A stretch of 40,998 bases of DNA, taken from the NCBI RefSeq assembly GCF_015155755.1, contig NZ_VWPI01000016.1:1-40998 (forward strand), read 5' to 3'. The notes beneath the pieces were generated by a model that did no database searches, was not told where the DNA came from, and was given only the letters and a program-made list of their open reading frames with translations. How positions within the stretch are numbered: the first letter of the stretch is position 1; the number at the start of each line of letters is the position of its first letter. Source of the DNA: Komagataeibacter sp. FXV3. Its GTDB lineage: Bacteria; Pseudomonadota; Alphaproteobacteria; Acetobacterales; Acetobacteraceae. The position numbers were made by a program, and so were the translations under genes. This document shows positions 14,101-40,173 of this stretch, in pieces.

Positions 14101-16762
14101 TGATCCATTCCCGCCGGGGCACGATATCGGGCAGCACCGGCAGGAATGCTGGCAGCGCCAGCGCCAGCAGGATGAATGTGGTCCAGGCCACGGCGGCATG
14201 GAACGGCAGCAGCCACCCCACCACAAGTGTCGCCAGCGCCAGTGGCATGCACAGCGTACGGCGCAGGTTGTCCAGCATCTTCCACCGCGCGATGCCCGAA
14301 AGCCGGGCACGGACGGGCACGCTGCGTGGCGGCAGGCTGGATACGATCCATGGCAGCAACTGCCAGTCACCCCGTGTCCAGCGGTGCAGCCGTTGGGCCG
14401 CGACCAGGTAGTCGGTGGGAAATTCCTCCACCACCTCGATATCCGTCACCAGACCGGCACGGGCGAAAATACCTTCGAACAGGTCATGGCTGAGCATGGC
14501 GGAATCCGGCACCCGCCGGGCCAATGCCGCCTCGAAGGCATCGATATCGTATATGCCCTTGCCCGCGTACGACCCTTCGCCAAACATGTCCTGATACAGG
14601 TCGGACACGGCGGCGGAATAGGCGTCGATACCGCTGGCGCTGGCGAAAATGCGCTGGAACAGCGTGCTCTGGTGGCCCACGGGCAAGGACGGCGTCACCC
14701 GTGGCTGCAGGATCGCGTAGCCTTCATGCACCCGTCCCGATACAGGATCGAAGCGGGGTGTGTTGAGGGGATGGGCGATCTTGCCAATCAGGCGGCACAC
14801 GGTTTCCAGCGGTAGGCGCGTATCGGCGTCCAGCGTGATGACATAGCGTATATCCGCTGGCAGGGCATGGGCGGGGGGCAGGAAGGTCGTGTCCACAGCC
14901 CCGCGCAGCAGGTGGTTGAGTTCATGCAGCTTGCCGCGTTTGCGTTCCCACCCCATCCAGACGCCTTCGCTTTCGCACCACACGCGCCTGCGGTGCAGCA
15001 GGTAAAAGCGCATGCCGTGCGGGCCGTGCCCGTATTTCTGGTTGAGGCGTTCCATACCCGCGCGCGCCAGCGCCAGCAGGCGCTGGTCATCAGGCGCATC
15101 GGCGCTGTCATGGTCGGTCCAGTCGGTCAGCAGCGCGAAGTGGACCGCGTCATCACGCACGGTCAGATAATGGACCTCCAGCCGCGTCAGCAGTTCACCC
15201 ACGGTTTTTTCCGTCGTCAGCAGCGCGGGCACGACCACCATGGTGCGCAGGTGTGCAGGGATACCGTGCCGGAATTCCAGGCCCGGCAGGGTCGTGGCAT
15301 GCACCGCCTCCAGCGCCAGGCGGTTGACGCAGGCGACCGCTGCCTCCGAAACCGGTATGAAGGCCAGCGCGGGCAGCAGCCACGCGGCATTCATGCCGGT
15401 CTGCCATGTTAGCCACAGCGGAATGGCGATGAACAGCACGCTCAGCAGCGTGACCACGATACTGTAGGCCGCAATTCCGTATGCGCAGAACCCCCGCACC
15501 ATCCGGCGCGCCATGGTGGGCCGGAAACGGATGGCGGCTTCCAGCGCGGGCCGCCCGGCCATGAGCAGGTAATAGCCCGGGTCGGCGCGGCGCGGGTCAT
15601 CCGTACCGGTGGCCTGTGCCGTGCGTGCCATGGCCACCGCCTGTCCGGCTATGGCCATTTCGGTCAGGCTGCAGCCACGGGCCAGATCCTCTATGGCCTT
15701 GCGGTACAGGTCCCGGCTGGCGAAATCGGCCTGCGTGAAGCTGTCATACTCGGCAAAAAGTCGGTCGATGAGGCAGACGCGACCGAATGCTTCGGTCCAG
15801 TCAAGGCCCGCGATCAGCCGCAGGCTGGTGATGATGTTGCGTATGGTGGCGTTGAAGGTTCCCTGTTCATGCAGGTCATCGCGTACCGCATTGTCAATGG
15901 TGCTGCCCCGGTCCGCCAGACGCTGTTCCAGCCAGACAAGGGCAGGATCCTTTTCAGGGTCCAGCCCACGGGAACGGTGGGCCAGCTGTGCCGTAAACGC
16001 ACAGTTGAGGATATGCGGGTCAACAGCGGCCAGAAAGCCGGACATGGCTGCTGGCGTGCCCTTGCGATAGGCGTCAAGCTGGTCGGCCAGCTGGTCGGCT
16101 GCCCCCCTGCTGGCGTTATTATCCATGATCGCACCGACAACCCGGCGCAGGTTTTCGATCAGCACGATCCGCAGCGTGATCGAGACCGCCCACAGTTCCC
16201 CGATCGTAAGGGGCGTCACACTCTGGTATGCCAGCAGGTAATTATACAGGATTTCAGGCTGCAGGTTGCTGTCGGTATGGGCGATAAGCGCCCATGTCAC
16301 GCCAAAGACCCGGGGCAGCCCGGCAAAGGGGCCATTGGCCAGCTTGGGCAGGCGCGCGTAATAACCGGCAGGCAGGTCAAGATCCGTCTCGCGTATCTGC
16401 ATGTCCACCAGCGCGTAATTGTCCGCCAGCCATTGGGCCGCGGGGGTAAGCTGTTTTCCGTTCTGGATATCCTGTGCGATCCGTATGTCGGCGGCGCGCA
16501 GGAAGGCTCCGTTTTCCGCCAGTCGACGTGACAGCGGCCGACCGTGCTCACGGCCATGCCCGTGGGGGGTGATGGTCTGGGCGGCGGCAAGGCTGCGGGC
16601 ATGGGCTTCCAGCCGTTCCATGCCAAAGATCTCGCTTTTCAGCGGGGCGAAGTCGTCTTCCCATGTGGGTGGGGGCACACGGCCCAGCAGGCGTGCCAGC
16701 CATGGGTGCCGTGTAGGCCAGAATGCACGGTCGGGCTGAGGGAAGGTGGTGGTCCCGTCCAT
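8186..16762 (-). CDS. ndvB: Cyclic beta-1,2-glucan synthase (GT84 + GH94)
   Basis: A 2858-residue inner-membrane enzyme, full length for NdvB/ChvB (about 2800-2900). It makes cyclic beta-1,2-glucan from UDP-glucose, an osmoregulated periplasmic glucan. Features in order: cytoplasmic N-terminal domain; a membrane helix pair near 430-480; GT84 domain with DADTRLPL near 644, GKGIYDID, SHDLFEG near 757 and HRWTRGDWQ near 794; more helices near 840-880, 900-930 and 965-1000; a glucoamylase-like domain (about 1050-1500); carbohydrate-binding regions; and a C-terminal GH94 phosphorylase domain with GTGDWNDGMNRVGERG near 2534 (catalytic Asp), GGQYTHAALW near 2690 and YTGSAGWMQ near 2765. That domain sets chain length. 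The ATG at 16762 has GGAG six bases upstream. It lies 60 bases after a small Pro-rich protein gene, probably one operon. Confidence 0.95.
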   Translation of the reverse strand: MDGTTTFPQPDRAFWPTRHPWLARLLGRVPPPTWEDDFAPLKSEIFGMERLEAHARSLAAAQTITPHGHGREHGRPLSRRLAENGAFLRAADIRIAQDIQNGKQLTPAAQWLADNYALVDMQIRETDLDLPAGYYARLPKLANGPFAGLPRVFGVTWALIAHTDSNLQPEILYNYLLAYQSVTPLTIGELWAVSITLRIVLIENLRRVVGAIMDNNASRGAADQLADQLDAYRKGTPAAMSGFLAAVDPHILNCAFTAQLAHRSRGLDPEKDPALVWLEQRLADRGSTIDNAVRDDLHEQGTFNATIRNIITSLRLIAGLDWTEAFGRVCLIDRLFAEYDSFTQADFASRDLYRKAIEDLARGCSLTEMAIAGQAVAMARTAQATGTDDPRRADPGYYLLMAGRPALEAAIRFRPTMARRMVRGFCAYGIAAYSIVVTLLSVLFIAIPLWLTWQTGMNAAWLLPALAFIPVSEAAVACVNRLALEAVHATTLPGLEFRHGIPAHLRTMVVVPALLTTEKTVGELLTRLEVHYLTVRDDAVHFALLTDWTDHDSADAPDDQRLLALARAGMERLNQKYGHGPHGMRFYLLHRRRVWCESEGVWMGWERKRGKLHELNHLLRGAVDTTFLPPAHALPADIRYVITLDADTRLPLETVCRLIGKIAHPLNTPRFDPVSGRVHEGYAILQPRVTPSLPVGHQSTLFQRIFASASGIDAYSAAVSDLYQDMFGEGSYAGKGIYDIDAFEAALARRVPDSAMLSHDLFEGIFARAGLVTDIEVVEEFPTDYLVAAQRLHRWTRGDWQLLPWIVSSLPPRSVPVRARLSGIARWKMLDNLRRTLCMPLALATLVVGWLLPFHAAVAWTTFILLALALPAFLPVLPDIVPRREWITLRSYLSVIGAKSAEAAVMTFLTITFLAHQAIIMTDAIVRTLVRVLITRRHLLQWVPAAQIAGFMNSGLGGYYGRMATAPLLGGGCVMATIIWAPWSLFMSVPIATLWGLSPAVAMWASRTPVIAARSRPSRTDIRILRMTARRTWRFFETFTTPADHMLPPDNFQEDPAPVLARRTSPTNIGLYLLCCASARDFGWIGLADTVARLEATFATLETMARYRGHFYNWYATDDLRPLDPVYISSVDSGNLAGHLIALSSACQRWLENGPEIDTWREGITDALNIAIADLTFHNGRRVAHTPAQRQLLRLLTGLKNAVLAAGASRSVAELSALHHQASTVLDHVATMPVPSSGPEGQDAAEQMFWATAPMRTLESHLRDLDADLYATLGARLDAVAQKARRMAQDMDFAFLCNPSRKLLSIGYLVAEDTQDANCYDLLASEARLAVFFAIAKGDMPAHDWFRLGRSITPVGSGAALVSWSGSMFEYLMPSLVMRAPMGSLLEQTNRLIVQRQIAYGQDRDIPWGISESAYNARDLDYTYQYSNFGIPGLGLKRGLGLETVVAPYATMLAAMIDPQKAVANLHTLERTGALGRYGLYEALDYTPDRIPDNQRVAVIRAYMAHHQGMSILAVADTVMNGIMRARFHDDPVIAAAELLLQERAPRTGAVARPLPSEDDTHAPAPTMATPAGRYVDRADMGGPVTHLLSNGRYAVMLTAAGSGYSRWQGQAITRWREDATRDEYGQYLYIRNRRTGRLWSAGLQPTDSTPDEYAVVFHEDRAEFARRDGTVTTTLDVLVSAEDDAEARQVSVFNAGGETLDIDITSCAELALLAQNADLAHPAFTKLFVQTEYIPQSRALIATRRRRTGDEPEIWVAHLALCDSPIEIETDRARFIGRRHDARRPAAMTTHAPLSGTTGTVLDALLAIRARASIRPGAMARITFWTMVAPSRAALLDLIDTHQDHAAFERARTLAWTQAQVQLRHLDVVPAMADLFQRLAGHILFATPSLRAASAQIARGAGAQPLLWEQGISGDLPIVVLRVRENSGTDIVRALLLAHEYFRLKQLAVDLVILNEHPSSYLQDLQVSLDQLVRTAPRAPGGAGSVRVLRADLVTPAVRHLIISVARVVLDADHTLSSQLDQRERPRARQFLPALPAVPPSPAAFDVPPVPELELFNGHGGFAKTGREYVIVLGPGQTTPAPWINVITNDTFGFQVSAEGSGYTWSGNSREHQITPWSNDPVSDHAGEIFYFRDEDTGTLWCPTAATRRDAAATYVTRHGRGYTRLDRVAHGIASCLLQYVPVSDPVKITRIQLHNQSDQPRNLSVTAYVEWVLGPARSTAAPFVMTERDGETGALFARNRWNAEYADRVAFADIGGYLTACSGDRAAFIGPNGNMDHPLAFTRAGGVQGATGAGLDPCGVVQTMVTLPPGGRAEIMFLLGEGTDVEHARSLIGQYRTTSPDHVLAAVTQHWDTVTGCIQVRTPDRTMDIMLNGWLLYQSLASRVQARAGFYQASGAYGFRDQLQDGMALTLSCPARVRAHLLRAASRQFVEGDVQHWWLPNTGAGVRTHISDDCAWLAHTVAHYVTTTGDTGVLDERIPFLQAPELPITEHDRFMIPATSDQSGTLFEHCARALDHSLAVGAHGLPLMGTGDWNDGMNRVGERGRGESVWLGWFLHDALMTFIPLARARGDGARVKAWQDHASALATALEAAWDGDWYLRAYFDDGTPLGSHVSAECQIDAISQSWSVLSGVALPERAEHAMRSAMARLVRPDEKLVLVLTPPFDAIGPDPGYIRSYPPGIRENGGQYTHAALWTTMAMAVLGDGDRAHSLFHMLNPINHTGKPEDVARYRLEPYVVAADIYSRPPHVGRGGWSWYTGSAGWMQRVGTETILGLRIHGTQLLVTPCIPHEWPGFTATVRWRTAIYHITVNNPDHVCRGINHVTCDGTPLPATGTIDMVDDGQSHDVTVTLGPQTVT

Positions 16763-16822
16763 ATTCTGCTCCAGTTTCATGCACATTCAGGCCTGTGGAC
16801 AGGCTGCTGCCGGTGCTGGCGT

Positions 16823-27989: not shown

Positions 27990-28859
27990 TTAATTATTTA
28001 TATATATTTGTTCATTGTATAAAGTCTTGATATCTTTTTTGCAATAATCAGGGGGGGGCGAGGTATTTCGCAAAGTGTTTATTTCCTGTTCGGATTTTTC
28101 ATATTCTTTCTGAAACTGTTTTGTGGCATGCCAAAGGCTGACCACCGCAGACCCAAGCAATCGTCCCGACTGCACATCACTGGGATAATGAAAACCACAT
28201 ATGACGCGACTATTCCCGTAATCTATTCCGCGTCGAAGAATTGTTTCCGCATGATCGGGTACCATTTCTGCCAATATGAGTGCCCATGCCCATCCGATTG
28301 CAGCATGTCCGGAAGGATATGAACTGGTCTTTGCCAGGGCGCTTCCGTCGACGCAGGGCTGAAAATTCATGGCTACATAAGGACGTGGTCGGAAACTGCC
28401 TTCTACCTTGACACTTTTCTGGACCGTTTCGACATCAGGTAATGCACGCGCCAGCAGACGTGTCAGATGCGGTGCCTTTTCCGGGTCAAAGGAAACCCCC
28501 ACGGCGCATTCAAAGGCGGCGGGCGCTGTTGGTGGCCCCAGAATGGCATCATGTGCCGCAATATTTTTTCGCGCAGGTGTCACTGTTGCCTGTACCTTGC
28601 GTATTGTTTCCCGATCAATATTGTCCTGGGGCGATCCGGGCGTTGGTGCAGGAGAAAGAAAGGCGGATGCCCGCGCAAACGGCACCTGATCGGGATGAAG
28701 ATACCCATGTGGATAATGGGCGGCATCGTGCCATAGAACAGGCTTGCTGGTGCAACCTGCCTGACAGAACATGACACAGGAAGAGGCTACTGTGATCATG
28801 GTTTTGAAATATAGTAATTTTTTTTTATACGTAGTCATGTCATGTTTCATGGCAAACAC
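27990..28859 (-). CDS. Class A non-specific acid phosphatase (PAP2 superfamily)
   Basis: 289 residues. N-terminal export signal with hydrophobic stretch MITVASSCVMFCQAGC; the Cys could be lipidated, though the lipobox (CQAGC) is not canonical. Catalytic motifs: KVEGSFRPRPY (first PAP2 motif, one residue longer between Lys and the final Arg-Pro than usual), SSYPSGHAAIGW (second, His) and SRVICGFHYPSDVQSGR (third, nucleophilic His), as in PhoN. It releases phosphate from many organic esters in the periplasm. The GTG at 28859 has AGG about nine bases upstream; the ATG at 28850 is the alternative. It is the last gene after a TonB receptor and phoD, 72 bases on. The last ~40 residues are charged and more AT-rich. 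Confidence 0.9.
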   Translation of the reverse strand: MFAMKHDMTTYKKKLLYFKTMITVASSCVMFCQAGCTSKPVLWHDAAHYPHGYLHPDQVPFARASAFLSPAPTPGSPQDNIDRETIRKVQATVTPARKNIAAHDAILGPPTAPAAFECAVGVSFDPEKAPHLTRLLARALPDVETVQKSVKVEGSFRPRPYVAMNFQPCVDGSALAKTSSYPSGHAAIGWAWALILAEMVPDHAETILRRGIDYGNSRVICGFHYPSDVQSGRLLGSAVVSLWHATKQFQKEYEKSEQEINTLRNTSPPPDYCKKDIKTLYNEQIYINN

Positions 28860-28931
28860 ACAATATTACCTGTAGGGACGAATGGAAGCCACCATTCATA
28901 TTTCGATATATGAACAGGGGATCACTGTTTT

Positions 28932-30503
28932 TTACACGTTAATCAATCCAGGATTTCCACGCTCGACTACATAAGTCTTTTCAACCGAAACACTGGATGC
29001 AGGATCACGAATGTCCGTAATTCCCATAAGGCGCGCTGTCATGGCCTGGGGAGAAAAATCAGCGATCACATATCCTCTTTTACGGCTGTCGAAAAACTTT
29101 ATGTCAGGATTGACCGGCAGGATTTTTTGTATGTTCTCGTATGCGGGGCCTAGGGATGTAATGGATGTTCCCAGAATTTCAGAAGCAACGATTGGTTTTT
29201 TCTCATCATGAGGGCGCGTTCTGATATTGCTTGCGAAAAATGAATGATAATCTCCACTGAAAATGATGGGATTGGGTGGGCGGTAATCTGCAAGGGCCTG
29301 CGTAAGCCGGTTACGGGCTGCATGAAAGCCATCCCATGTATCAGTCCAGTAGCGATAACCTGTTCCCTTCTGGTCGGGAATACGCAGGGAAGCCACCATC
29401 AAATCCTGCGCGATGATGGTCCAGACCTTGGAATGATCACGAAAACCATCAAACAGCCACTGTTCCTGCTCGGCACCAAGGAATGTACGGCGTGGGTCCG
29501 CAAGATCTGAACAGCTTTCAGATATGACACGCCCATCCCCATATTTAGGTGGGACGGGGCAGGGTTGCCGGGAACGGTACTGGCGACCATCCAGAAGATC
29601 AATGACAGCCAGATCGCCATATTTGGCACGACGATAAATTTTCATTCCGCCATTGGGAAGACGCAACGTCCTGCGTACAGGCATGTTTTCGTACCATGCC
29701 TGCCATGCGACATGCTGTCGCCGCGCAAAGGCTTCTACGCTTTCTTCCGGTGCCGGAGCCCATATGCCCGAATAATCATCCTTGACCTCATGGTCGTCCC
29801 ATATGGGCAGCCATGGTGCAACAGCATGCGCCGCCTGCAGGTCGGGATCGGTTTTCTGCAGGGCATAGCGCCATCGGTAGCCTTCCAGATCGGTGGCTTC
29901 GGGCGCACCGTAGGAACGAACGGTTAGCGCGGCACGGGAGGGGGGGGCATTATGTTCATAAATATAATCCCCCAAGAACAGAACAATATCCGGATTTTCA
30001 GCAGCCAGATGGCGGTAGGCGGAATACCAGCCCATTTCCCAATGGGCGCACGAAGCAATGGCCACGCGCAAGGAACTGGTGGGTTGCCCGTCACGGGGGA
30101 AGGTGATTGTCCGGCCAATCTGGCTCTGGCTGCCTTCCGCCATGAAACGGTACCAGTAGGCGCGGCCTGGCTGCAATCCATCCGCTTCGACATGCACGCT
30201 GTAACCGTTTCCGGCCGTGGCCGGTATGGATCCCTTGCGCACGATATGGCGCATGTTCTCGTCTTCCGCTATTTCCCAGTAAACGCTGACGCTGGGCGGA
30301 AGGCGGGGTGCAACGCCCGGAGCCAGGGGTAAAGTACCAAGGCGGGTCCATAATACAAAGCCATCCGCCGTCGGGTCCCCACTGGCCACGCCGAATGGGA
30401 AGACAGTGTCTTCCCTACCCGACAGATTGGCTGCATGCACAATGGACGGCAGGACTAGTGCTCCCGTGGCACCCAGGAAAGTACGACGCGAAAGGGCAGA
30501 CAT
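28932..30503 (-). CDS. phoD: Alkaline phosphatase D (phosphodiesterase/phosphomonoesterase)
   Basis: 523 residues. Tat signal SRRTFLGATGALVLPS with cleavage near VHAA. A PhoD N-terminal beta domain (FPFGVASGDPTADGFVLWTRL) precedes the metallophosphatase core: VAIASCAHWEMGW (conserved Cys as metal ligand), IVLFLGDYIYEH (Asp, Tyr), WLPIWDDHEVKDDYSG (D-D-H-E), IIAQDLM and PIIFSGDYHSFFAS (D-x-H). Such enzymes need Ca2+ and Fe3+ and cleave phosphomonoesters and diesters. An excellent GGAG lies eight bases before the ATG. It starts 26 bases after the TonB-receptor stop, so they are co-transcribed, and the acid phosphatase follows. Confidence 0.95.
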   Translation of the reverse strand: MSALSRRTFLGATGALVLPSIVHAANLSGREDTVFPFGVASGDPTADGFVLWTRLGTLPLAPGVAPRLPPSVSVYWEIAEDENMRHIVRKGSIPATAGNGYSVHVEADGLQPGRAYWYRFMAEGSQSQIGRTITFPRDGQPTSSLRVAIASCAHWEMGWYSAYRHLAAENPDIVLFLGDYIYEHNAPPSRAALTVRSYGAPEATDLEGYRWRYALQKTDPDLQAAHAVAPWLPIWDDHEVKDDYSGIWAPAPEESVEAFARRQHVAWQAWYENMPVRRTLRLPNGGMKIYRRAKYGDLAVIDLLDGRQYRSRQPCPVPPKYGDGRVISESCSDLADPRRTFLGAEQEQWLFDGFRDHSKVWTIIAQDLMVASLRIPDQKGTGYRYWTDTWDGFHAARNRLTQALADYRPPNPIIFSGDYHSFFASNIRTRPHDEKKPIVASEILGTSITSLGPAYENIQKILPVNPDIKFFDSRKRGYVIADFSPQAMTARLMGITDIRDPASSVSVEKTYVVERGNPGLINV

Positions 30504-30529
30504 ATGCGGTCTCCGTGTACCAGTCGTGG

Positions 30530-32845
30530 TTAGAAATCGCCGCGCACGCGGACGTACCAGGTGGCGGGTCTGCCAGCAAGGCCGATATAGTCGCCGCTGA
30601 CAAAGTAGCCGCGCGTCACATCGTATTGCTTGTTGAAGATGTTTTCGCCAATGGCTTCAAATTTCCAGTGGCCCTGGCGTGGTGCGATGGACATGTAGGC
30701 ACCCCACAGGGTATAGCCGGCTATCGTATCAACAGGGTTGGGGCTCCAGTTGGTTGTTCTCAGGCTGTAATTCATGCCGGTATTCAGATTATATTTGCCT
30801 ATCGGCCATGTGTAATCAATCGAACCGTTGGCCATGAAATGCGGGACGGATATACCTTTCCCCGCCATGTTTTCCACGCGCGCGGTATACAGGCCGTCAC
30901 TGCCCTTGATTGCGCCGGTGATTTCAGTAAATTTATCGTATGCGCCCGTAACATAGGCACCAGACTGGGAGATGTTCAGTCCTGGAATTGGCGACCATTC
31001 AAATTCGTATTCTCCCCCATATTCATGGGACCGGGGTGCGTTGACGTATATACCGATACCGCCCGTATTCGGGTTGACGGTTTCTGCCTGTACCTGACGG
31101 TCAAAGTAATCATAGTAGAAAAAATCTGCATTAAACCGGATATTATATTTTGGTATGGTAATCTTGTTGCCAATTTCATACGAAAAAAGGTTTTCGGGCT
31201 TGAACGGTTGCGTCATCGCCGCGACATTGTTCGAATTGTATAGGGTAAACCCGCCAGATTTCACACCTTTTGAAAATGTAAAATAGGCCATATCATTATG
31301 GACCGGATTGTACTCGATGCTGAATTTGGCTGAAGGCAGGGTATAGGACTGTGTGCGTTGGCCTACATAGTTATCCGGGTTTGTAATTACGTTCTTAACT
31401 ATATAGTGGGCATATACGTTATCCAGATGTCGTGATTCATGCTCCATACGAAAGCCGCCGACAATATGCAGTTTGGGTGTGATGTCATATGTCAACTGAC
31501 CAAAACCGCTGATGGTATTTACGATCTGTGAATACCGTACATCACCATCAGTATCGTACAGATTGGTAAACCCTGACTGGTAGCGGTCATTCAGCCATTG
31601 ATGACCGTAATAAACCCCGGCGATCCAGTGTAGGCGACCGCCCGTATTGGATGAAAAACGCAGTTCATTCGAAAAGACAGATGCACGTGTCTTGAATGAG
31701 ACATCTGCAAGGGAAAGGGAGGAATCGTCAAAATTGTCATATTCGTTGCGCTGCATGTAATCATAGCTAACCAGGTCTGTAATGGTAAAACCTGGAAGCT
31801 TCTTTTCCATGCGCAGATTTGTGCCGCCGGTATCAATATGGCTAAACGGCGTGGTATTTGGAGAAATCCCGATTTCCTTGGCGAATGCCGGGGATGTGCC
31901 CCAGGTGGTGGCATAGCGGTTGGAAGACACCTGCATTGGATCCGTCTTGCTCAATGACGTGATGGGTGTCCAGGCATGCACACCATTGGCATCCGAACGG
32001 TCGATGCTGCCATGCAGGTTATACTCAAACTTCAGGGTATCCGTAGGCGTGTAATCCAGAAGCAGACGCGCGGCACCCCGGCTTACATTGCCCAGGGATT
32101 CGCGGGCTTCAGGATTGTACTGCCATGCTCCGCCCTGCTGGGTTTCAGCTGCAAAACGGAAGCGCAGTTTGTCTGTGATCGGGCCGGATATGTAGCCATC
32201 AATCTTGGTATCATTAAAGCGACCATACTGGGCGGCAATGCCGGCTTTCAGCGTATCTGTCGGTTTGTTCGTTATGTAATTGATCGCGCCGCCCGTGCTG
32301 TTGCGTCCGTACAGGGTACCTTGCGGGCCGCGCAGCACTTCGACGCGCTGCATGTCAAACATCATGCCGTTGATGCCAAACGGGACCGGATTGGCAACTT
32401 CGTCGATATAAATACCAACGGTAGGGGAGTTGTTACTGGAGTATCCGGAAAATCCTACGCCACGGATTGTATAAGTATACTGTCCGCTGCCATAGGAAGG
32501 CTGAACCTGCAATGAAGGTGTTGCGTATTGCAGGTCAAATACGTTGTTGATGTTTCTGTTTTCCAGAACCTTGCTGGAAATGACGCTAATTGAAGAAGGA
32601 ATATTTTGTGCGCTCTGTGCACGCCTTTCCGATGTCACGATGACATTTTCAATGCGCGGCTTGGGGGCGGCGGCCCGGGTGCTGGAGGGTTCCCTGGTAG
32701 TATGGGGCACGTTTTTTTTGTGGACTACGGGATGTGAACCAGAGGGAAGCGTCTGGCTATAGGCCACATTGGAAAATGGTAAGATTGCACTACCTAGGGC
32801 GAGCGCCATTCTACGATTTTTTAGTATATGACTTTTTTTGTACAT
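30530..32845 (-). CDS. TonB-dependent outer-membrane receptor
   Basis: 771 residues. Signal peptide MYKKSHILKNRRMALALGSA with cleavage near VAYS-QTL; the start is fixed by GGAAAG eight bases ahead of MYKK. TonB box ENVIVTSERR near residue 70, plug domain with LQVQPSYGSGQYTYTIRGVG and RVEVLRGPQGTLYGRNSTGG, then a 22-strand barrel ending with the usual terminal aromatic, WYVRVRGDF. It belongs to the FyuA/FecA-like group by plug sequence. Being first in a unit with phoD and an acid phosphatase, it may import an organophosphate or a phosphate-linked compound rather than a siderophore; the substrate is inferred from context only. Confidence 0.93.
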   Translation of the reverse strand: MYKKSHILKNRRMALALGSAILPFSNVAYSQTLPSGSHPVVHKKNVPHTTREPSSTRAAAPKPRIENVIVTSERRAQSAQNIPSSISVISSKVLENRNINNVFDLQYATPSLQVQPSYGSGQYTYTIRGVGFSGYSSNNSPTVGIYIDEVANPVPFGINGMMFDMQRVEVLRGPQGTLYGRNSTGGAINYITNKPTDTLKAGIAAQYGRFNDTKIDGYISGPITDKLRFRFAAETQQGGAWQYNPEARESLGNVSRGAARLLLDYTPTDTLKFEYNLHGSIDRSDANGVHAWTPITSLSKTDPMQVSSNRYATTWGTSPAFAKEIGISPNTTPFSHIDTGGTNLRMEKKLPGFTITDLVSYDYMQRNEYDNFDDSSLSLADVSFKTRASVFSNELRFSSNTGGRLHWIAGVYYGHQWLNDRYQSGFTNLYDTDGDVRYSQIVNTISGFGQLTYDITPKLHIVGGFRMEHESRHLDNVYAHYIVKNVITNPDNYVGQRTQSYTLPSAKFSIEYNPVHNDMAYFTFSKGVKSGGFTLYNSNNVAAMTQPFKPENLFSYEIGNKITIPKYNIRFNADFFYYDYFDRQVQAETVNPNTGGIGIYVNAPRSHEYGGEYEFEWSPIPGLNISQSGAYVTGAYDKFTEITGAIKGSDGLYTARVENMAGKGISVPHFMANGSIDYTWPIGKYNLNTGMNYSLRTTNWSPNPVDTIAGYTLWGAYMSIAPRQGHWKFEAIGENIFNKQYDVTRGYFVSGDYIGLAGRPATWYVRVRGDF

Positions 32846-33025
32846 CGACATGACTTTCCATATATTATAATACCTTAGTAAACCATCTACGGATACTCTT
32901 TTCCCTTTCTGCCCGCTGTGCACATGTCGCTTCATTCATCAATGCCGTCGAACCAGGTATAAAACACGAAACCAGGACGAATCATTTATTTATTTCTAAT
33001 TCTAACCTATACTATGCAACATAAC

Positions 33026-33539: not shown

Positions 33540-34661
33540 TCAGGCGGGAAGGTCATGCCATGTCTTTCCTTGCCGATGCGGGGGCAGGGTAGCCGCATGG
33601 ACACCACGCGCGACGGCACGGGCAAGGGTATCCGCCGCGACGGATCCCAACCGGGCAATGGTCAGTTCGCGGTTCTGTCCGGGGATTTCTTTCTGCGCGG
33701 TGGACAGGGCGAATACCACATCCCCGTCAAACGGCGAATGGATGGGACGGATCGCGCGTGCAAGCCCGTCCTGTGCCATCATGGCAACACGCTTGAGTTC
33801 ATCCGCGTCCAGTCGTGCGTCCACGGCAATGCAGGCGATGGTGGTATTGGCACGCGCGCCGGGGTTCAGCTTGGCCTCACCCCAGTCTTCGCCATAGACC
33901 GATCGGGTTGACGCGCCCAGCCCGCCAAATTCATTGTCAATTTCCAGCGGTCCGGCCCAGAAATTGCGCGTGCCCGGCACCACTACCGAACCAAGGCTGT
34001 TCACACAGACCAGCGCGCCGACAGTCATACCATCACCTGTCTGGAAAGAGGCAGATCCCAGCCCCCCTTTCAGGCTGCCCGCGCTCGCGCCATATCCACC
34101 TCCTGCCGTACCCAGTGCGAATGGCCCGGCCTTGGCATGACGGATCGCCTGCTCACCCAATCGGCGATAGGGCGGATTGGTCCCCCACTGCTTGTCGCCC
34201 GCATTGGCAAGATCATACAGTACGGCGGTAGGCACGATGGGTGATGGGGGCACGCCCTTTTTGGAAATGAGGGAGAAGCCACGCCCCTGCGCTCCCAGCC
34301 AGCTTGCCACGCCATCCGCCGTCGCTAGCCCATAGACCGAGCCACCGGACAAGACGATGGCGTCTACGCTGCGAACCAGGTTGCCTGCACTGAGTGCATC
34401 TGTTTCCCGCGTGCCGGGGCCGCCTCCACGCACATCCACCGCGCAGGCCGCGCGCTGGTCAGGCACGATGACCGTAACGCCGGTATAGGCGCGGGCGTCA
34501 TCGGCCAGTCCGATTTTCAGGCCGGCCACATCCGTCATAAGGTTCAGCCTGCCCGGTGCGCCAAGGCGTGCGGGAATGGCGGCTGAAACGGCATGGGGTA
34601 CAACCGCCATGCCACCGGTGGCCAGCATGGCCTGAATCAGTTGGCGTCTATGCAATTTCAT
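33540..34661 (-). CDS. P1-family N-terminal-nucleophile peptidase/amidase, exported
   Basis: 373 residues of the P1 (DmpA/BapA/NylC) family. Twin-arginine-like signal HRRQLIQAMLATGGMAVVPH with cleavage near VSA. Family core: MTDVAGLKIGLADD, DVRGGGPGTRETDAL, IVLSGGSVYGLATADGV and ALGTAGGGYGASAGSLKGGLGSAS. The autocleavage site is ANTTIACIAVDA at about residue 270: Asn-Thr, where the exposed Thr would become the nucleophile. Relatives cleave N-terminal amino acids, beta-peptides or 6-aminohexanoate oligomers. The ATG at 34661 overlaps the symporter stop by one base (TGATG) with AAAGG upstream, so translation is coupled. Substrate unknown. Confidence 0.9.
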   Translation of the reverse strand: MKLHRRQLIQAMLATGGMAVVPHAVSAAIPARLGAPGRLNLMTDVAGLKIGLADDARAYTGVTVIVPDQRAACAVDVRGGGPGTRETDALSAGNLVRSVDAIVLSGGSVYGLATADGVASWLGAQGRGFSLISKKGVPPSPIVPTAVLYDLANAGDKQWGTNPPYRRLGEQAIRHAKAGPFALGTAGGGYGASAGSLKGGLGSASFQTGDGMTVGALVCVNSLGSVVVPGTRNFWAGPLEIDNEFGGLGASTRSVYGEDWGEAKLNPGARANTTIACIAVDARLDADELKRVAMMAQDGLARAIRPIHSPFDGDVVFALSTAQKEIPGQNRELTIARLGSVAADTLARAVARGVHAATLPPHRQGKTWHDLPA

Positions 34662-36073
34662 CACCTTTCAGTCACAGATATCTGTTTGTGGGGTTGGGAA
34701 CAGGCGGTTCCGGGCACACGGGATATGCCACCCCATACAACCAGTGCATTGATGATCAGCCCGATCATGCCGGGGTTCAGCCCGGCTGGCATGATATGAA
34801 GGAAAAACAGGCCCATCCCGACCAGATCGCCACATAACAGTCCGGCAATAATGGGAATGGCCGGCACCCTGCGGTCAAGCAGGGCAACAATAATGCCCGG
34901 CGCCAGCTGGGTCACACCGATATAATACAGGTTGTTCAGTACGACCATCAGCCCCGACAGAGACGCCCCGCCCAGTACCGAGACCACAAGATAGATGGCG
35001 ATGGTGACCTGTGCCCCGATTTTCTGCGCACGGTCCGAATGCCCGGGCATGAGGTTGCGCGAAACCAGTGGTCCCAGCGCCAGACAGACGCCCGCCAGGA
35101 TCACTAGCGCCGATAACGCGCATCCCCCCGCCACCAGTCCCCGCGCCCAGTCGGGCAGGGTGGCGCAAACCGCGACCATAAAAACGTCATTGGGTGATGC
35201 AGGTGTTGCGCCCGATGTCCGGACATACAGCGCCATCATGAACAGAAACGGGAACATAAGCATGTAAAGCGGCATGAAAATCTGATTTTTCTGCAATGTC
35301 CGGGGGGATTTTGCAGTAAACAGAAAGGCAACCGTCTGTGGTGCGATACACAGCCCGATCGATTGTAGGATGATTGTTGATACAATAAAGGCATTTCCCC
35401 CCGGCAGGCCATGCCCACCGTTATCGGGGCTGGAGAATTCCGGCACGGTGGCGGGCCAGTGCATGGCATGCATGGCTGCATAGCCACCCATCACGATGGC
35501 CGCCACCATCAGAACGTCCTTCAATATGGATACATAGGCGGGCGCCCGGATACCGGATAGCAGTATCCACGCCAGCGTCAGTGATGCGCACAGGCCTGTC
35601 ATCACCATGCCCGGGATATGCCAACCCAGGTTGCGCACCACCACCATAAGGCCTGCAAACTGCATTTCGCCAAATGGAAGGAGAAATAATGCCGTATTCA
35701 GCACAACAAGGATTTCCAGCGCCCGGCTGGCGTAATGGTTGCGAAAGATATCGGCGACGGTAATGCATGCGTACCGCTGGCCCAATGTCCATATGCGCGG
35801 GTTCAGGAAATAACCCACCGGATAGGACAGCAGGATGTAACCCAGGAACCAGAACCCAAATCCGCTGCCTTGGGTGTATATGCCTGCGGGGAAACCCAGT
35901 ACGCTGCCAATGCTGTATGTTTCACCAATGGTCAGGAAAAAAATGAGGATTGCGCCAAACTGACCCGACGCCACAAAGAAATCGCGCGCGTTTCGGGCCG
36001 CATGGCGATATCGCGAATAAACGGCGATCAGCACGGAAGCCATGATGACAGCAATGAATACGGAAATTTCCAT
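34661..36073 (-). CDS. Sodium:solute symporter family protein
   Basis: 470 residues, about 13 membrane helices, of the SSS family (APC fold), clade that pairs with DUF3311 proteins. Features include RDFFVASGQFGAILIFFLTIGETYSIGSVLGFPAGIY near residues 30-75 and ILLSGIRAPAYVSILKDVLM near 170. It should import an organic acid, amino acid or amide with Na+. It starts three bases after the DUF3311 gene and overlaps the P1-hydrolase gene, so all three form one operon. Specificity cannot be read from sequence; the flanking amidase and P1 hydrolase suggest an amide- or peptide-bonded substrate or its product. Confidence 0.92.
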   Translation of the reverse strand: MEISVFIAVIMASVLIAVYSRYRHAARNARDFFVASGQFGAILIFFLTIGETYSIGSVLGFPAGIYTQGSGFGFWFLGYILLSYPVGYFLNPRIWTLGQRYACITVADIFRNHYASRALEILVVLNTALFLLPFGEMQFAGLMVVVRNLGWHIPGMVMTGLCASLTLAWILLSGIRAPAYVSILKDVLMVAAIVMGGYAAMHAMHWPATVPEFSSPDNGGHGLPGGNAFIVSTIILQSIGLCIAPQTVAFLFTAKSPRTLQKNQIFMPLYMLMFPFLFMMALYVRTSGATPASPNDVFMVAVCATLPDWARGLVAGGCALSALVILAGVCLALGPLVSRNLMPGHSDRAQKIGAQVTIAIYLVVSVLGGASLSGLMVVLNNLYYIGVTQLAPGIIVALLDRRVPAIPIIAGLLCGDLVGMGLFFLHIMPAGLNPGMIGLIINALVVWGGISRVPGTACSQPHKQISVTER

Positions 36074-36076
36074 CTC

Positions 36077-36343
36077 TTATTCCACTGGCTTTCTGTCTGC
36101 CTTGTATTGCGCGGATGATGACAGATTCGAGCAGGTATACAGACATGCCGGAACCAGCATGAAACAGGCGAATATCCAGATTATTTCTAGCGGAACCCCG
36201 AATAGCACCATCCTTTGCGCCTGCAGGGCAAGGCCACCCCCGATAACCAGACAGAAAGGCAGGCCAAGGCCGACAGCCAGCGCGGGAAGGGAAATGGCGG
36301 GGACTGCCTGCATGGCGTCATCGCGTCCGTCCTGATCGTGCAT
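36077..36343 (-). CDS. DUF3311-family small membrane protein
   Basis: 88 residues with two membrane helices (about 20-45 and 52-72: VGLGLPFCLVIGGGL and IIWIFACFMLVPACLY), the usual DUF3311 form. Such proteins are encoded immediately before SSS transporters and are probably accessory subunits, analogous to YhdT/YhdP-type partners. An in-frame ATG ten codons in (36313) would give a 78-residue protein nearer the family norm. Stop codon three bases before the symporter start. Confidence 0.85.
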   Translation of the reverse strand: MHDQDGRDDAMQAVPAISLPALAVGLGLPFCLVIGGGLALQAQRMVLFGVPLEIIWIFACFMLVPACLYTCSNLSSSAQYKADRKPVE

Positions 36344-36504
36344 TTCTGTCTGACCCTATCCTGTTGTCATTCGTTACGATGTCATTTCAAAGTGTATGGC
36401 TGATGCGGATACGATAGAGACGCGGTCGCCCGGCAATGTCAAAGCTGGACGTTGTAAGTGGAAGTCCTGTTGCCGAACAATACGGACCTGTTCACCCCTC
36501 CAGG

Positions 36505-37893
36505 TCATGATGGGGGAAGCGGCCAGCATGGCATGGGGCCACGCGCTGTTTCATACAGGGCCGCCAGCCGGATTGCCTGCAGATCAGCAAAACGTGGGGT
36601 TATGATCTGCGCCCCGATTGGCATACCGCTGCGTGAAAAACCACAGTGAACAGACACGGCGGGCTGTTCGGACATGTTCCATGGGACAGTAAAGGCAATG
36701 TGGTCAAAAGAGCGTTCCGGGTCGTTGGTCGGCCCCGGATATTCAGCGGGGAAACTGACATTTGGCGTGGTGGGCGACAGGACAATATCAATTTTTTCAA
36801 ACAGTTGAGAACATTTCTGCCGCATGGCAAATGTCTGCCCCAGCCCGTCCACGGCGGCAACACCGCTGACCTTCTCGCCACGCTGCGCCCATGTGCGGAT
36901 GAAGGGCAGCACCTTTTCCAGCCTGTCGGGGGGAAGCTGGCTCAGTTCCGCCCAGCTTCGCGCGGACCAGTACTGGTCCAGCCCCGACAGCATCGCGGGC
37001 GTCATGACCGGATCAACAGGGATGATTTCAGCCCCCATATCGGCAAGCACGCGGGCCACGTTTTCAATCGCAACGCGGATTTCGTCATCCAGATTCAGCC
37101 CGCAGCCCGCGTCCAGCATAAGGCCGACCTTCAGGCCCCGGACATCCATGCCCTTGTAATAGCTGTCCCAGTCAATATCCGTATAGGGCAGGCTGGTGGC
37201 GTCACGTGCATCGGGCAGGGACAGTACGTTCATCATCAGGGCCGCGTCGCCTACCGTGCGGGTCATGGGGCCTGCGCAGCGGCCGATATAATAGGGATCG
37301 ATGGGAATGCGCCCGAGGGAAGGCTTGAACCCGACCAGCCCGCACCACGCCGCCGGCAGACGGACGGAACCGCCAATATCGGTGCCGACATGCAGCGGTC
37401 CGTAACCCGCCGCCGCCGCCGCCGCGGCACCCGCGCTGGAACCGCCGGGATTGCATGCCAGGTTCCACGGATTGCGCGCCAGCGGGTGAAATGTCGAAAG
37501 CCCTGATGACAGCATGGCGAAATCAGGCACCGTGGTTTTCGCGAAAATCAGTGCGCCCGCTTCCTTCAGCCGGGCGGCGGGTGGGGCATCCTGTGTCGCG
37601 GGCACCAGCTTGCTGGCGATGCTGCCCTGCGGGATGGGTTGGCCTTTGGTCGCGATCAATTCCTTCAGTGTTGCGGGCACGCCATCCAGAATGCCGCAGG
37701 GGCGACCATTTATCCATCGCTGTTCCGACTGGCGGGCTTCACTGATCAGCCTGTCGGGTTCATAGGCGTATAGCGCCCCCAGCGTGCTTTCCCAGCGTGC
37801 GATATGCGCGATCAGCGCATTGGCGTATTCAACCGGGGAAAGGGTTCTTTTGCGGTAGGAAGAAAGGAGTTCGCGAGCCGTCAGATCCATCAT
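36505..37893 (-). CDS. Amidase-signature family hydrolase
   Basis: 462 residues of the amidase signature family. Ser-cisSer-Lys triad: Lys77 in GVPATLKELIATKG, cis-Ser in CNPGGSSAGAAAA (about residue 152), and nucleophile Ser176 in GTDIGGSVRLPAAWCG. The rest follows the family (VGFKPSLGRIP, GPMTRTVGDAALMMNVL). No signal peptide, so cytoplasmic. Family members hydrolyse aliphatic, aryl or cyclic amides, including the 6-aminohexanoate cyclic dimer (NylA). It lies 160 bases upstream of DUF3311 on the same strand with no terminator between, and is divergent from a LysR gene. A perfect palindrome at 37925-37938 lies 32 bases ahead of its start. Confidence 0.93.
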   Translation of the reverse strand: MMDLTARELLSSYRKRTLSPVEYANALIAHIARWESTLGALYAYEPDRLISEARQSEQRWINGRPCGILDGVPATLKELIATKGQPIPQGSIASKLVPATQDAPPAARLKEAGALIFAKTTVPDFAMLSSGLSTFHPLARNPWNLACNPGGSSAGAAAAAAAGYGPLHVGTDIGGSVRLPAAWCGLVGFKPSLGRIPIDPYYIGRCAGPMTRTVGDAALMMNVLSLPDARDATSLPYTDIDWDSYYKGMDVRGLKVGLMLDAGCGLNLDDEIRVAIENVARVLADMGAEIIPVDPVMTPAMLSGLDQYWSARSWAELSQLPPDRLEKVLPFIRTWAQRGEKVSGVAAVDGLGQTFAMRQKCSQLFEKIDIVLSPTTPNVSFPAEYPGPTNDPERSFDHIAFTVPWNMSEQPAVSVHCGFSRSGMPIGAQIITPRFADLQAIRLAALYETARGPMPCWPLPPS

Positions 37894-38197
37894 GGGCGTA
37901 GGTTTCTTTCATTTCCCTTCACACCCTGTAATTACAGGATGGATATTGGTGGGTGTGGAAGGGATGACTTGTTTCAATAACATGATGGTATGGGTGGCCC
38001 GTAGCGTCTGAATATCCCAAATTTGTGCGCAGGGTGGAATAAAAAACGATCTACAATCGAAACGATATTGTAAACCCATGGCTTTTCTGTCAGCCAGGGC
38101 ATGATTTTTCCAGTTCTCCGACTTTTTCCTTAAAACATTACGATCAGGCGTATATATTCCATGCCACTGGCCCGGTGCGTATCAATGGGGAACATAT
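37894..38197. other. Divergent promoter region, amidase operon / LysR
   Basis: 304 bases between divergent genes with no open frame of interest. It carries the 14-bp palindrome at 37925-37938 and several T-rich stretches suited to promoters. A LysR gene on one side and an amidase operon on the other make it a likely regulator-binding region. Confidence 0.5.
37925..37938. promoter_or_regulatory. Perfect 14-bp palindrome CCTGTAATTACAGG, candidate operator
   Basis: CCTGTAATTACAGG is self-complementary over all 14 bases and contains a T-N8-A core. It sits 32 bases ahead of the amidase start and about 260 bases from the divergent LysR start. At that position it could block or activate the amidase operon promoter. 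Candidate partner: the LysR protein encoded at 38198, though LysR sites usually have a longer T-N11-A form. Confidence 0.6.
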
Positions 38198-39121
38198 ATG
38201 TCACTCAAAGCCTTGCAACTGTTCCTGATCGTGGCGCAGGCGACATCCCTGCGGCAGGCCGCCCAGCGACTGAACATGACCCCCACCGCCCTGCGCCGCC
38301 AGATCGACAGCCTTGAATATTATTTCGGATCTGAACTGATGGATCGCAACGCAGGCGGCATCCGCCTGACCGAGGCCGGCCAGCTGCTGCTGGGGCAGGC
38401 TGCGCGCATCCTGAATGATATCGCGGTGACCCGTACGCGGATCGATGACCTGAAACAGTTGAAACGTGGCACGGTCAGGATACAGGCAGGCGGTGCGATC
38501 GTGGCCGAACTGCTGGTACCCACCATCTGCACGGTTCATGAACAGTATCCCAACCTGCGCTTTCATGTGTTTGAAAGCAGGGCGTCGGGCATGGTCGCGG
38601 CCCTGACTGATGGCGGGATCGACCTGGTGGTCAGCCTGTTTACCCCCGAGGCGGCCCGGTCCTTCGTCAGCCACAGCATGCAGCTCAGGCACAGCGTGAT
38701 CGTCAGCACGGATCATCCGCTGGCCTGCCTGGCGTCCGTGACCATCCGGGAACTGTCGCGCCATGCCCTGGCCATTCCCGATGAATCCTTTGGCGTGCGC
38801 CGGGAACTCAACCGCGCGGCACAGGCCTGCGGCATTACCCTCGACCCTGTATTCGTGACGGGTTCGCTGGAGATGCAGAAGGAAGTCGCGATGCGTGGCA
38901 TGGCGGCACTGGTGCTGCCGCCCGAATGTTGCCGGCGGGAAATACAGGGCGGGCTGCTGTGCGCCGTTCCCATCCAGCCCGCCAATGCCATCAGTGCGAC
39001 ACTGGATCTGTGCTGCCTGCCGCAGCGGCGCAAATCCTTCGCCTGTCAGGCCCTGTTTGACGCGCTGGCGCAACAGATGCGCATCGGTTTCACCACGGGC
39101 GCGCTGGAACGCGTGAATTAG
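38198..39121 (+). CDS. LysR-family transcriptional regulator, divergent from the amidase operon
   Basis: 307 residues. Helix-turn-helix at the start (ALQLFLIVAQATSLRQAAQRLNMTPTALRRQIDSLE, residues 4-39 in outline). A substrate-binding domain begins near RGTVRIQAGGAIVAELLVPT, with VVSLFTPEAA and ALAIPDESFGVRRELNR. The start is supported by GGGGAA seven bases ahead of the ATG. It faces away from the amidase operon across a 304-base gap, so it probably controls that operon in response to a substrate or product. Effector unknown. Confidence 0.92.
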   Translation: MSLKALQLFLIVAQATSLRQAAQRLNMTPTALRRQIDSLEYYFGSELMDRNAGGIRLTEAGQLLLGQAARILNDIAVTRTRIDDLKQLKRGTVRIQAGGAIVAELLVPTICTVHEQYPNLRFHVFESRASGMVAALTDGGIDLVVSLFTPEAARSFVSHSMQLRHSVIVSTDHPLACLASVTIRELSRHALAIPDESFGVRRELNRAAQACGITLDPVFVTGSLEMQKEVAMRGMAALVLPPECCRREIQGGLLCAVPIQPANAISATLDLCCLPQRRKSFACQALFDALAQQMRIGFTTGALERVN

Positions 39122-39270
39122 GGGCCACGGCCATGATGGCCCATAGGCAGGGCGTGAGGATGGTGAAATGACATGGCGGCGCATGGTCATGCCGCCCTGT
39201 AGTCCGCATTGTCCGGTAATGGAAATTCACTCCCCAACCCGGTGGGGTGCGTGATACATCTTTTCCCGAC

Positions 39271-40173
39271 ATGACAACCCAGATGATGATCGAACTGATT
39301 GCCGTCCTGACGGCCGTGCGTGACGATGTACCGCAGGTCATGACGATCGACCATGGTCGCCTGCTGCCATCGGGGCCGCTGGAAAGTACCCACCGCTCCC
39401 TGCAGGCAGGGGTCAGGGCATGGGTGGAACGCCAGACCGGACACCCCATCGGGCATGTGGAACAGTTGTACACCTTTGCCGATCATGACCGCCTGCTGAC
39501 CACGGGGCAGGGCAGGCTGATTGCCATTTCCTACCTCGCCCTGACCCGTAGCCACGCAGGGGAAACAGGATGGCGGGACTGGTACGACTATTTCCCGTGG
39601 GAAAACAGCAAGACGGATGTGGGACGGGACTGCCTGGCCATTATCGAACGCCTGCTGTGCCGGTGGGTGGCGAACATGGACAACGCTGCCGTGCGCGTGC
39701 GGCAGTGGCAGCGCTGTGTTTCCCTGTTCGCCATTGGCGACATGGTGGCCTGGAATGACGAACTGGTGCTGCAACGCTATGAACTGCTGTATGAAGCGGG
39801 GCTGGTTGCGGAAGCGGGGTGCCCGCCGGAAGACGCCGTGCCGGGACAGGCAATGCATCATGACCACCGGCGCATACTGGCCACCGGCATGGCGCGGCTG
39901 CGTGCAAAGATACGTTACCGGCCTGTTGTTTTCGAACTGATGCCGGAGGAATTCACGCTGCTGCAATTGCAGCGCGTGATGGAAAGCCTGTCGGGCGTCC
40001 AGATCCACAAACAGAATTTCCGCCGCCTGATCATGCAGCAGCAACTGGTTGAGGAAACAGGCAGAATTGAAGAAAACACCGGCGGTCGTCCCGCCCGGCT
40101 GTACCGTTTCTGCGGGGAGGTCAGGCAGGCGCGGCAGTTTGTTGGCACCAAGATCCCGCTATTCCAGCCCTGA
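39271..40173 (+). CDS. NrtR/NadQ-like NAD-biosynthesis regulator with degenerate Nudix domain
   Basis: 300 residues. An N-terminal Nudix-like domain (about 1-150) has LPSGPLESTHRSLQAGVRAW and RAWVERQTG where a catalytic Nudix box would read G-x5-E-x7-RE-x2-EE; the metal-binding acidic residues are mostly gone, so it should bind but not hydrolyse a nucleotide. A C-terminal winged helix follows (about 210-290, FELMPEEFTLLQLQRVMESL and HKQNFRRLIMQQQLVEE). This pairing is the NrtR/NadQ regulator group sensing ADP-ribose or NAD-related ligands. It is followed by nadA with a 143-base gap containing a near-perfect operator. Start: the ATG at 39271; an in-frame GTG at 39247 is possible and neither has a good ribosome-binding site. 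Confidence 0.85.
   Translation: MTTQMMIELIAVLTAVRDDVPQVMTIDHGRLLPSGPLESTHRSLQAGVRAWVERQTGHPIGHVEQLYTFADHDRLLTTGQGRLIAISYLALTRSHAGETGWRDWYDYFPWENSKTDVGRDCLAIIERLLCRWVANMDNAAVRVRQWQRCVSLFAIGDMVAWNDELVLQRYELLYEAGLVAEAGCPPEDAVPGQAMHHDHRRILATGMARLRAKIRYRPVVFELMPEEFTLLQLQRVMESLSGVQIHKQNFRRLIMQQQLVEETGRIEENTGGRPARLYRFCGEVRQARQFVGTKIPLFQP

What the first reader, a model, noticed from the sequence alone, without database searches (positions are those of the whole stretch)
33540..38197. Amidase / DUF3311 / sodium symporter / exported P1 hydrolase locus with its own LysR regulator
Seen: four same-strand genes (gaps 160 and 3 bases, then a 1-base overlap) and a divergent LysR. Known: the amidase-signature and P1 families include NylA (6-aminohexanoate cyclic-dimer hydrolase) and NylC (oligomer hydrolase), which together take apart nylon oligomers; P1 members also include beta-peptide and D-amino peptidases. 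Inference: the exported P1 enzyme trims an oligomeric or cyclic amide outside the cytoplasm, the symporter imports the product and the cytoplasmic amidase finishes it. The combination looks like an uncharacterised catabolic system; the natural substrate could be a cyclic dipeptide, lactam oligomer or plant amide.
Basis: partly seen in the sequence, partly recalled or inferred. Interest (0 to 1): 0.7.

Follow-up and report, generated by a model that had tools for sequence, protein, structure and literature searches.

The report
Envelope-spanning amide scavenging module, possibly pantetheine
Vinegar-type bacteria carry a conserved set of genes that appears to catch an amide compound outside the cell, cut it, import the piece and cut it again inside; the gene company suggests the compound is pantetheine or vitamin B5, but this is untested.

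Summary
In detail: amidase, DUF3311-like protein, symporter and P1 (S58) hydrolase lie on one strand with a divergent LysR. In the window an in-operon receptor gene has been deleted, leaving 24 codons in the amidase/DUF3311 gap; a second receptor lies beside P1. P1 carries an invariant twin-arginine signal and an invariant Asn-Thr site. By sequence and fold its nearest solved relative is ThnT, a pantetheine hydrolase, ahead of NylC, BapA and DmpA. The amidase belongs to family PRK07042, not to NylA or GatA. Elsewhere the same P1 and amidase families share a Dpp-type ABC transporter, an SDR and an ALDH; panB/panC lie near four P1 loci and one amidase locus. I propose pantetheine -> pantothenate (periplasm, P1), import, then pantoate + beta-alanine (cytosol, amidase). 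Architecture: about 0.8. Substrate: an inference, about 0.37; gamma-glutamyltransferase in 45 of 127 P1 loci keeps a glutathione-like substrate open. The nylon-oligomer reading is not supported.

The parts
30530..32935 (-). TonB-dependent receptor (true start probably about 32857, uncertain); 50-55% identical to receptors sitting beside P1/amidase in relatives
   Evidence: Pfam barrel and plug over cut-off; tblastn/blastp to L033, L036, L037, L038, L039, L041, L081
33540..34661 (-). P1 (S58) N-terminal-nucleophile amide hydrolase with twin-arginine signal; predicted self-cleavage at Asn272|Thr273
   Evidence: Pfam; 19-row alignment with R5 R6, N272 T273 invariant; ThnT best by sequence and fold
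34661..36073 (-). SLC5/SSS-type symporter
   Evidence: No Pfam hit; NCBIfam MctP 132.7 bits, below its cut-off 625; model pLDDT 82 matches SGLT, CHT1, SMCT1, SiaT
36077..36343 (-). DUF3311-like small membrane protein
   Evidence: Pfam sub-threshold; aligns with annotated DUF3311 next to homologous symporters
36387..36458 (-). C-terminal remnant (24 codons with stop) of a deleted in-operon TonB receptor gene, intact in Komagataeibacter diospyri
   Evidence: blastn break and alignment against L125
36505..37893 (-). Amidase-signature hydrolase, family PRK07042; candidate pantothenase
   Evidence: Pfam, NCBIfam equivalog; tight linkage to P1 in L033, L036, L037, L038
38047..38059 (.). Candidate LysR operator CGATCTACAATCG inside a 32-base stretch identical in K. 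diospyri
   Evidence: alignment; single exact match in the window, chance mean 0.74 at up to two mismatches; weak
38198..39121 (+). Divergent LysR-type regulator
   Evidence: Pfam HTH_1 and LysR_substrate; a homologue lies near the module in L036, L037, L038, L040, L125

Best explanation
An envelope-spanning scavenging module. A TonB receptor takes an amide compound across the outer membrane. A Tat-exported, self-cleaving P1 hydrolase cuts one amide bond in the periplasm. An SLC5-type symporter with a DUF3311 partner imports the carboxylate product. A cytosolic PRK07042 amidase cuts the second amide bond. LysR probably controls the set. The leading substrate is pantetheine or pantethine: P1 gives pantothenate and cysteamine, the symporter imports pantothenate, and the amidase gives pantoate and beta-alanine. 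Shown: gene content, partial conservation, signal motif, catalytic residues, fold classes. Inferred: export, direction of transport, operon transcription, the order of steps, and above all the substrate.
For: P1's nearest solved relative is the pantetheine hydrolase ThnT, by sequence and fold. P1 has N-T and lacks the Glu of the DmpA-type paralogue in the same genome. Two hydrolases fit two amide bonds; among 127 nonredundant P1 loci (window not counted) 8 have the amidase and 5 the PRK13013-type M20 hydrolase, and none has both at the thresholds used. In Ensifer the amidase family lies with ALDH, SDR, Dpp-type ABC genes and a LeuB-family enzyme, the enzyme classes of pantoate breakdown (pathway recalled, no call). 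Homologous SDR (54-58% to Ensifer's) and ALDH (62-66%) lie in the P1 loci L126, L127, L199, L202, and with M20 and Dpp genes in one gene row in L215. panB/panC lie near P1 in L121, L147, L240 and panC in L196; about 0.53 loci are expected, P(4 or more) about 0.002 under a crude model; panB/panC lie near the amidase in L212. The pantothenase protein was stated unidentified in 2023 (PMC10393543, passage).
Against: No activity is shown. ThnT is only 37% identical and its place in the tree is unsure. The symporter is closer to MctP than to PanF (132.7 against 23.3 bits, both below cut-off), and its relatives also stand without P1, for instance in G135. The window genome gave no match to the SDR at E <= 1e-40. 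Among the loci examined a LeuB protein at 45% or more is seen only in Ensifer, and it passes the true leuB cut-off (444.1 against 353.2). 45 of 127 P1 loci hold gamma-glutamyltransferase, usually as the next gene, and they are spread over the P1 tree, including the branches next to the exported clade; this points to glutathione-like substrates. Some amidase loci have other neighbours (purine genes L209, 5-oxoprolinase/urea amidolyase L205). The panB/panC links are few, lie up to about 5 kb from P1, and L121 and L240 may be related by descent.
Confidence: 0.37

Rival explanations
1. Same architecture, but the substrate is a glutathione-like or gamma-glutamyl thiol peptide: P1 cuts a peptide such as a Cys-Gly-type product and the amidase a second bond.
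For: GGT (PF01019; TIGR00066 over cut-off) lies in 45 of 127 nonredundant P1 loci, usually next to P1, 36 of them inside the 74-row clade that also holds the exported P1s and 9 on other branches; Dpp-type importers carry peptides, and the SBP's second NCBIfam hit is GsiB, below cut-off.
Against: 44 of the 45 GGT rows lack the twin-arginine flag, and none of the 36 rows of the exported clade has GGT at the 40% threshold, though looser GGT relatives lie further off in L045, L047, L141, L155, L173; P1 lacks the DmpA-type Glu, which I recall as the substrate-amine anchor; the window genome's GGT genes are on other contigs.
Confidence: 0.25
2. Same architecture, but the substrate is an amide of an amino alcohol: SDR and ALDH in relatives oxidise the released alcohol amine rather than pantoate.
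For: SDR and ALDH recur with P1; the ALDH's best models are betaine/aminobutyraldehyde dehydrogenases, below cut-off.
Against: SDR and ALDH models are broad superfamily hits; does not explain the panB/panC or LeuB neighbours.
Confidence: 0.15
3. One reading: a lactam or nylon-like oligomer degrader related to NylA and NylC.
For: Same superfamilies; P1 matches Nyl50 and NylC, and NylC too is cleaved at Asn/Thr (abstract of PMC6021441, listing).
Against: ThnT outranks both nylonases; NylA is a distant amidase match and the amidase is a PRK07042 equivalog.
Confidence: 0.08
4. Exogenous hydroxamate siderophore breakdown: the TonB receptor takes up the siderophore and P1 cuts its amide bonds.
For: Receptor matches the TonB-siderophore model at 130 bits, below the 223.5 cut-off.
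Against: That match is general to receptors; LysR rather than a known iron regulator lies beside the genes; amidase, SDR and ALDH neighbours fit catabolism.
Confidence: 0.05

Closest known systems
ThnT pantetheine hydrolase (Streptantibioticus cattleyicolor thienamycin pathway)
   Same: Family, fold, N-T nucleophile, no DmpA-type Glu; best PDB match by sequence and fold
   Different: 37% identity; no twin-arginine flag; biosynthetic role (recalled)
NylC / Nyl50 nylon hydrolases
   Same: Same P1 family
   Different: Weaker matches than ThnT; their gene company was not examined
DmpA / BapA aminopeptidases
   Same: Same superfamily; the window genome holds a separate DmpA-type paralogue (C163)
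   Different: The DmpA-type paralogue has G-S and a Glu that this P1 lacks
MctP-DUF3311 monocarboxylate symporters
   Same: SLC5/SSS fold with DUF3311 partner gene
   Different: Well below the MctP equivalog cut-off; coupled to hydrolases and a receptor
Bacterial pantothenase (EC 3.5.1.22)
   Same: Proposed activity of the amidase
   Different: Protein reported unidentified in 2023 (PMC10393543); no sequence to compare
Polysaccharide-utilisation-type loci (principle, recalled)
   Same: TonB receptor, periplasmic hydrolase, importer, cytosolic hydrolase in one locus
   Different: Amide rather than glycoside chemistry; different families

Membership tests
Peptidase S58 (P1) | Pfam PF03576 over gathering score | tested here: met
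   184.5 against 23.9 bits
Peptidase S58 (P1) | Self-cleavage before Ser/Thr nucleophile | not testable with these tools
   N272-T273 invariant in 19 of 19 rows; cleavage itself needs protein
ThnT-type pantetheine hydrolase | Closest characterised homologue and fold | tested here: met
   phmmer 7e-52; Foldseek 7e-26
ThnT-type pantetheine hydrolase | Hydrolysis of pantetheine amide | not testable with these tools
   No activity data
NylC nylon oligomer hydrolase | NylC as best characterised match | tested here: not met
   NylC 1e-19 behind ThnT and Nyl50
DmpA/BapA aminopeptidase | G-S nucleophile and Glu in the VVAE-type motif (role of Glu recalled) | tested here: not met
   N-T and no Glu at that place; own DmpA-type paralogue has both
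NylA cyclic-dimer hydrolase | NylA as best characterised match | tested here: not met
   6.8e-30, eighteenth row
GatA | TIGR00132 over cut-off | tested here: not met
   196.9 against 481.1 bits
PRK07042 amidase | NF005450 over cut-off | tested here: met
   745.7 against 458 bits
SLC5/SSS symporter | Family fold | tested here: met
   pLDDT 82; SGLT, CHT1, SMCT1, SiaT top the list, TM about 0.7
MctP | NF046076 over cut-off | tested here: not met
   132.7 against 625 bits
PanF | TIGR02119 over cut-off | tested here: not met
   23.3 against 328 bits
DUF3311 | PF11755 over gathering score | tested here: not met
   16.9 against 30 bits; alignment and gene order with annotated members agree
Tat substrate | Twin arginine before a hydrophobic stretch | tested here: met
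   R5 R6 invariant in 19 of 19; export itself not tested
Pantothenase | Hydrolysis of pantothenate | not testable with these tools
   Gene unknown; only context evidence

The most novel reading that the evidence does not exclude
One locus holds gene candidates for a dedicated bacterial pantetheinase (the exported P1) and for the long-unidentified bacterial pantothenase (the PRK07042 amidase), with their own receptor and importer. In relatives the same enzyme families feed a pantoate oxidation route (SDR, ALDH, LeuB-like).
Probability: 0.28. Interest if true: 0.75.

Novelty: new variant of a known kind. Interest (0 to 1): 0.55.

Why it matters
Pantothenase activity was described in papers of 1966 and 1979 (reference list seen), but its protein was still called unidentified in 2023 (PMC10393543, passage). 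A 2025 review says pantethine enters bacteria by an unknown mechanism (PMC12570885, passages). If the reading is right, both questions become directly testable with two named genes and a transporter. Even if the substrate differs, a TonB-receptor, periplasmic-amidase, symporter, cytosolic-amidase chain is an amide counterpart of sugar-utilisation loci. It also gives P1 enzymes, now of interest as nylon hydrolases, a natural metabolic setting.

Tried and rejected
NylA/NylC system: ranked behind other families. DmpA-type aminopeptidase: rejected by motif; the genome's true DmpA-type protein is another gene. PanF membership of the symporter: not met. PhoD beside the window's TonB receptor as a phosphopantetheine step: PhoD relatives lie in 2 of 127 P1 loci (L154, L155, both Brevundimonas); too weak to use. 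GNAT genes near P1 in Serratia, Roseobacter and L244 as a cysteamine acetylase: the GNATs of the different groups are hardly alike. Operator search for LysR: only a weak candidate. Literature: ThnT plus pantetheine plus hydrolase gave 2 papers (listing); pantothenase gave 8 (listing; one read in passages); DUF3311 gave 2 (listing); nylonases 20, 15 listed; the pantetheinase, pantoate and P1-with-TonB searches (886, 154, 20 and 107 papers; 20, 15, 10 and 20 rows listed) showed no description of this module in the rows listed.
Full report
What is there. The window lies, by inference from its closest named relative at this locus, in an acetic acid bacterium: the P1 of Komagataeibacter diospyri is 94% identical and the flanking genes match. 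On the minus strand lie an amidase (36505-37893), a DUF3311-like protein (36077-36343), a symporter (34661-36073) and a P1/S58 hydrolase (33540-34661); a LysR regulator diverges at 38198-39121. The gaps are 161, 3 and -1 bases.

Each protein. P1 passes Pfam S58. Its best solved relatives are ThnT 7e-52, Nyl50 1.2e-41, NylC 1e-19, with BapA and DmpA at 3.7e-5 and 4.9e-4. The predicted model (pLDDT 71, with weak parts at 137-157 and 255-271, so the active site cannot be judged) puts ThnT first by fold, 7e-26, then Nyl50 and NylC. The alignment of 19 acetic-acid-bacterial P1s has invariant twin arginines and an invariant Asn272-Thr273. The genome holds a second P1, of DmpA type; ours lacks its Glu and has N-T in place of G-S. 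The amidase is NCBIfam PRK07042 (745.7 bits, cut-off 458), with GatA 196.9 against 481.1. The symporter escapes Pfam, but its model (pLDDT 82) matches SGLT, CHT1, SMCT1 and SiaT. The DUF3311 assignment rests on alignment and gene order rather than on Pfam.

Conservation. Of 200 family genomes, 88 have a P1 match. I fetched 18 loci with 57-78% identical P1 (L033-L050). By tblastn 12 of 18 have the symporter, 5 of 18 the amidase (L033, L036, L037, L038, L040) and 6 of 18 a TonB receptor at 50% or more (L033, L036, L037, L038, L039, L041). Amidase and P1 overlap or abut in L033, L037 and L038 and are 40 bases apart in L036 (coordinates). The gene order varies and several genomes keep P1 without these partners nearby, so the module is loose and often lost. 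Three of three other genomes of the same genus in the draw lack a P1 match; one of them has a 58% identical symporter all the same.

The receptor. K. diospyri (L125) has amidase, TonB receptor, DUF3311, symporter, P1. The window matches it on both sides of a break at 36457-36460, where 2251 bases of L125 are absent. The window keeps 24 codons of the receptor's C-terminus at 36387-36458. Another receptor, 30530-32935, with PhoD and a PAP2-like gene (by eye, not tested), stands between P1 and the next shared gene; L125 after P1 has none. This second receptor is the one that resembles the receptors of other modules (50-55%; the L125 receptor 34-39%). The own genome's best match to the L125 receptor is this second receptor, 36%.

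Export within the family. In a tree of 129 rows, one clade of 36 (local support 97) holds 33 rows flagged by my twin-arginine rule, two more fit by eye (L041, L133) and one does not (L130); among the other 92 P1 rows 1 is flagged (L193). The clade spans acetic acid bacteria, Serratia, Brevundimonas, a Novosphingobium, an Alcaligenaceae bacterium and MAGs. The importer near P1 is the SLC5 type in acetic acid bacteria, L126, L127 and L149, and a Dpp-type ABC transporter in Brevundimonas.

Substrate clues. In Ensifer (L207, annotated; L208, found by similarity) the same amidase family stands with ALDH, SDR, a Dpp-type ABC transporter and a LeuB-family enzyme. The SDR and ALDH there are 54-58% and 62-66% identical to those in the P1 loci L126, L127, L199 and L202. 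In L215 one row reads M20, Dpp transporter, ALDH, SDR, P1. SDR-linked P1s occur in at least five places in the P1 tree. In a class-wide search with this SDR (385 genomes), eight genomes had 60% identity or more; of these, 4 of 8 have P1 within the fetched stretch, 1 of 8 has the Dpp, M20 and ALDH genes without P1, and 3 of 8 have none of them. The amidase family and P1 also meet outside the module loci in L081, L191 (amidase cut by the contig end) and L223. panB and panC lie near P1 in L121, L147 and L240, panC in L196, and panB/panC near the amidase in L212. The 127-locus count shows 3 of them; L240 is a longer stretch of the genome whose short locus L214 is in that set. A crude Poisson estimate expects 0.53 such loci, P(4 or more) about 0.002, P(3 or more) about 0.017; it assumes 4-Mb genomes with one panBC and ignores relatedness.

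Interpretation. Pantetheine has two amide bonds, and the module has two amide hydrolases in two compartments. The pathway pantothenate, pantoate, dehydropantoate, dimethylmalate, ketoisovalerate (recalled, not from a call) asks for an amidase, an alcohol dehydrogenase, an aldehyde dehydrogenase and a decarboxylating malate-type dehydrogenase, the classes found in Ensifer. In the window species no SDR match was found at E <= 1e-40, so the route would end at pantoate plus beta-alanine; a panB match is present.

Against. Gamma-glutamyltransferase lies in 45 of 127 nonredundant P1 loci, usually next to P1. In the tree 36 of these 45 fall in the 74-row clade that also holds the exported P1s, and 9 on other branches; the pairing may therefore be old, which speaks for a glutathione-like substrate at least in those groups. 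The LeuB protein is scored as true LeuB. ThnT's place in the tree is unsure. The symporter is not PanF. The amidase family also appears with purine and 5-oxoproline genes, and of 50 amidase loci 17 have Dpp genes, 9 P1, 5 the symporter, 3 ALDH, 2 SDR and 1 panB/panC (this set holds the Ameyamaea locus twice, as L033 and L128). I therefore hold the architecture at about 0.8 and the pantetheine reading at 0.37.

Literature. Passages only were read of PMC10393543 and PMC12570885. A paper on MctP regulation (PMC9100948) holds the word DUF3311; I saw its listing only. The searches listed no paper that describes this module; I saw only the rows listed.

Noticed in passing
window 27990-32935: TonB receptor, PhoD phosphatase (28932-30503, RR near its start) and a PAP2-like gene (by eye) form a block between P1 and a diacylglycerol-kinase-like gene (by eye) that K. 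diospyri (L125) lacks there.
   Followed up: partly
L143 6216-8189 and other P1 loci: A gamma-glutamyltransferase gene lies in 45 of 127 nonredundant P1 loci, usually as the divergent next gene, mainly in Caulobacterales- and Maricaulales-type records.
   Followed up: partly
L203 2599-16868: A Pseudomonas P1 locus carries two luciferase-like flavin monooxygenases, a probable TonB receptor (by eye), a TPR-like protein and a Dpp-type transporter, as in organosulfur loci.
   Followed up: no
L106 1453-4065; L107 and L110; L210, L211: Relatives of the symporter stand beside other amide-type hydrolases: an AAT-type protein (L106) and an Amidohydro_3 plus CobW-type pair (L107; L110 by clustering; annotated likewise in Burkholderia and Caballeronia).
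   Followed up: partly
L186, L188, L191, L199, L203, L216, L081, L071: A conserved TPR-like protein of about 450 aa and unknown role recurs in P1 loci with the Dpp transporter (8 of 127 loci).
   Followed up: no
window 39247-40173: NrtR-type winged-helix regulator, also beside LysR in K. diospyri (L125 220-1227).
   Followed up: no
window 8186-16786: A single 2866-aa open reading frame; not identified here.
   Followed up: no
L136, L142, L145, L133: Serratia species carry an exported-type P1 next to a GNAT acetyltransferase gene.
   Followed up: partly
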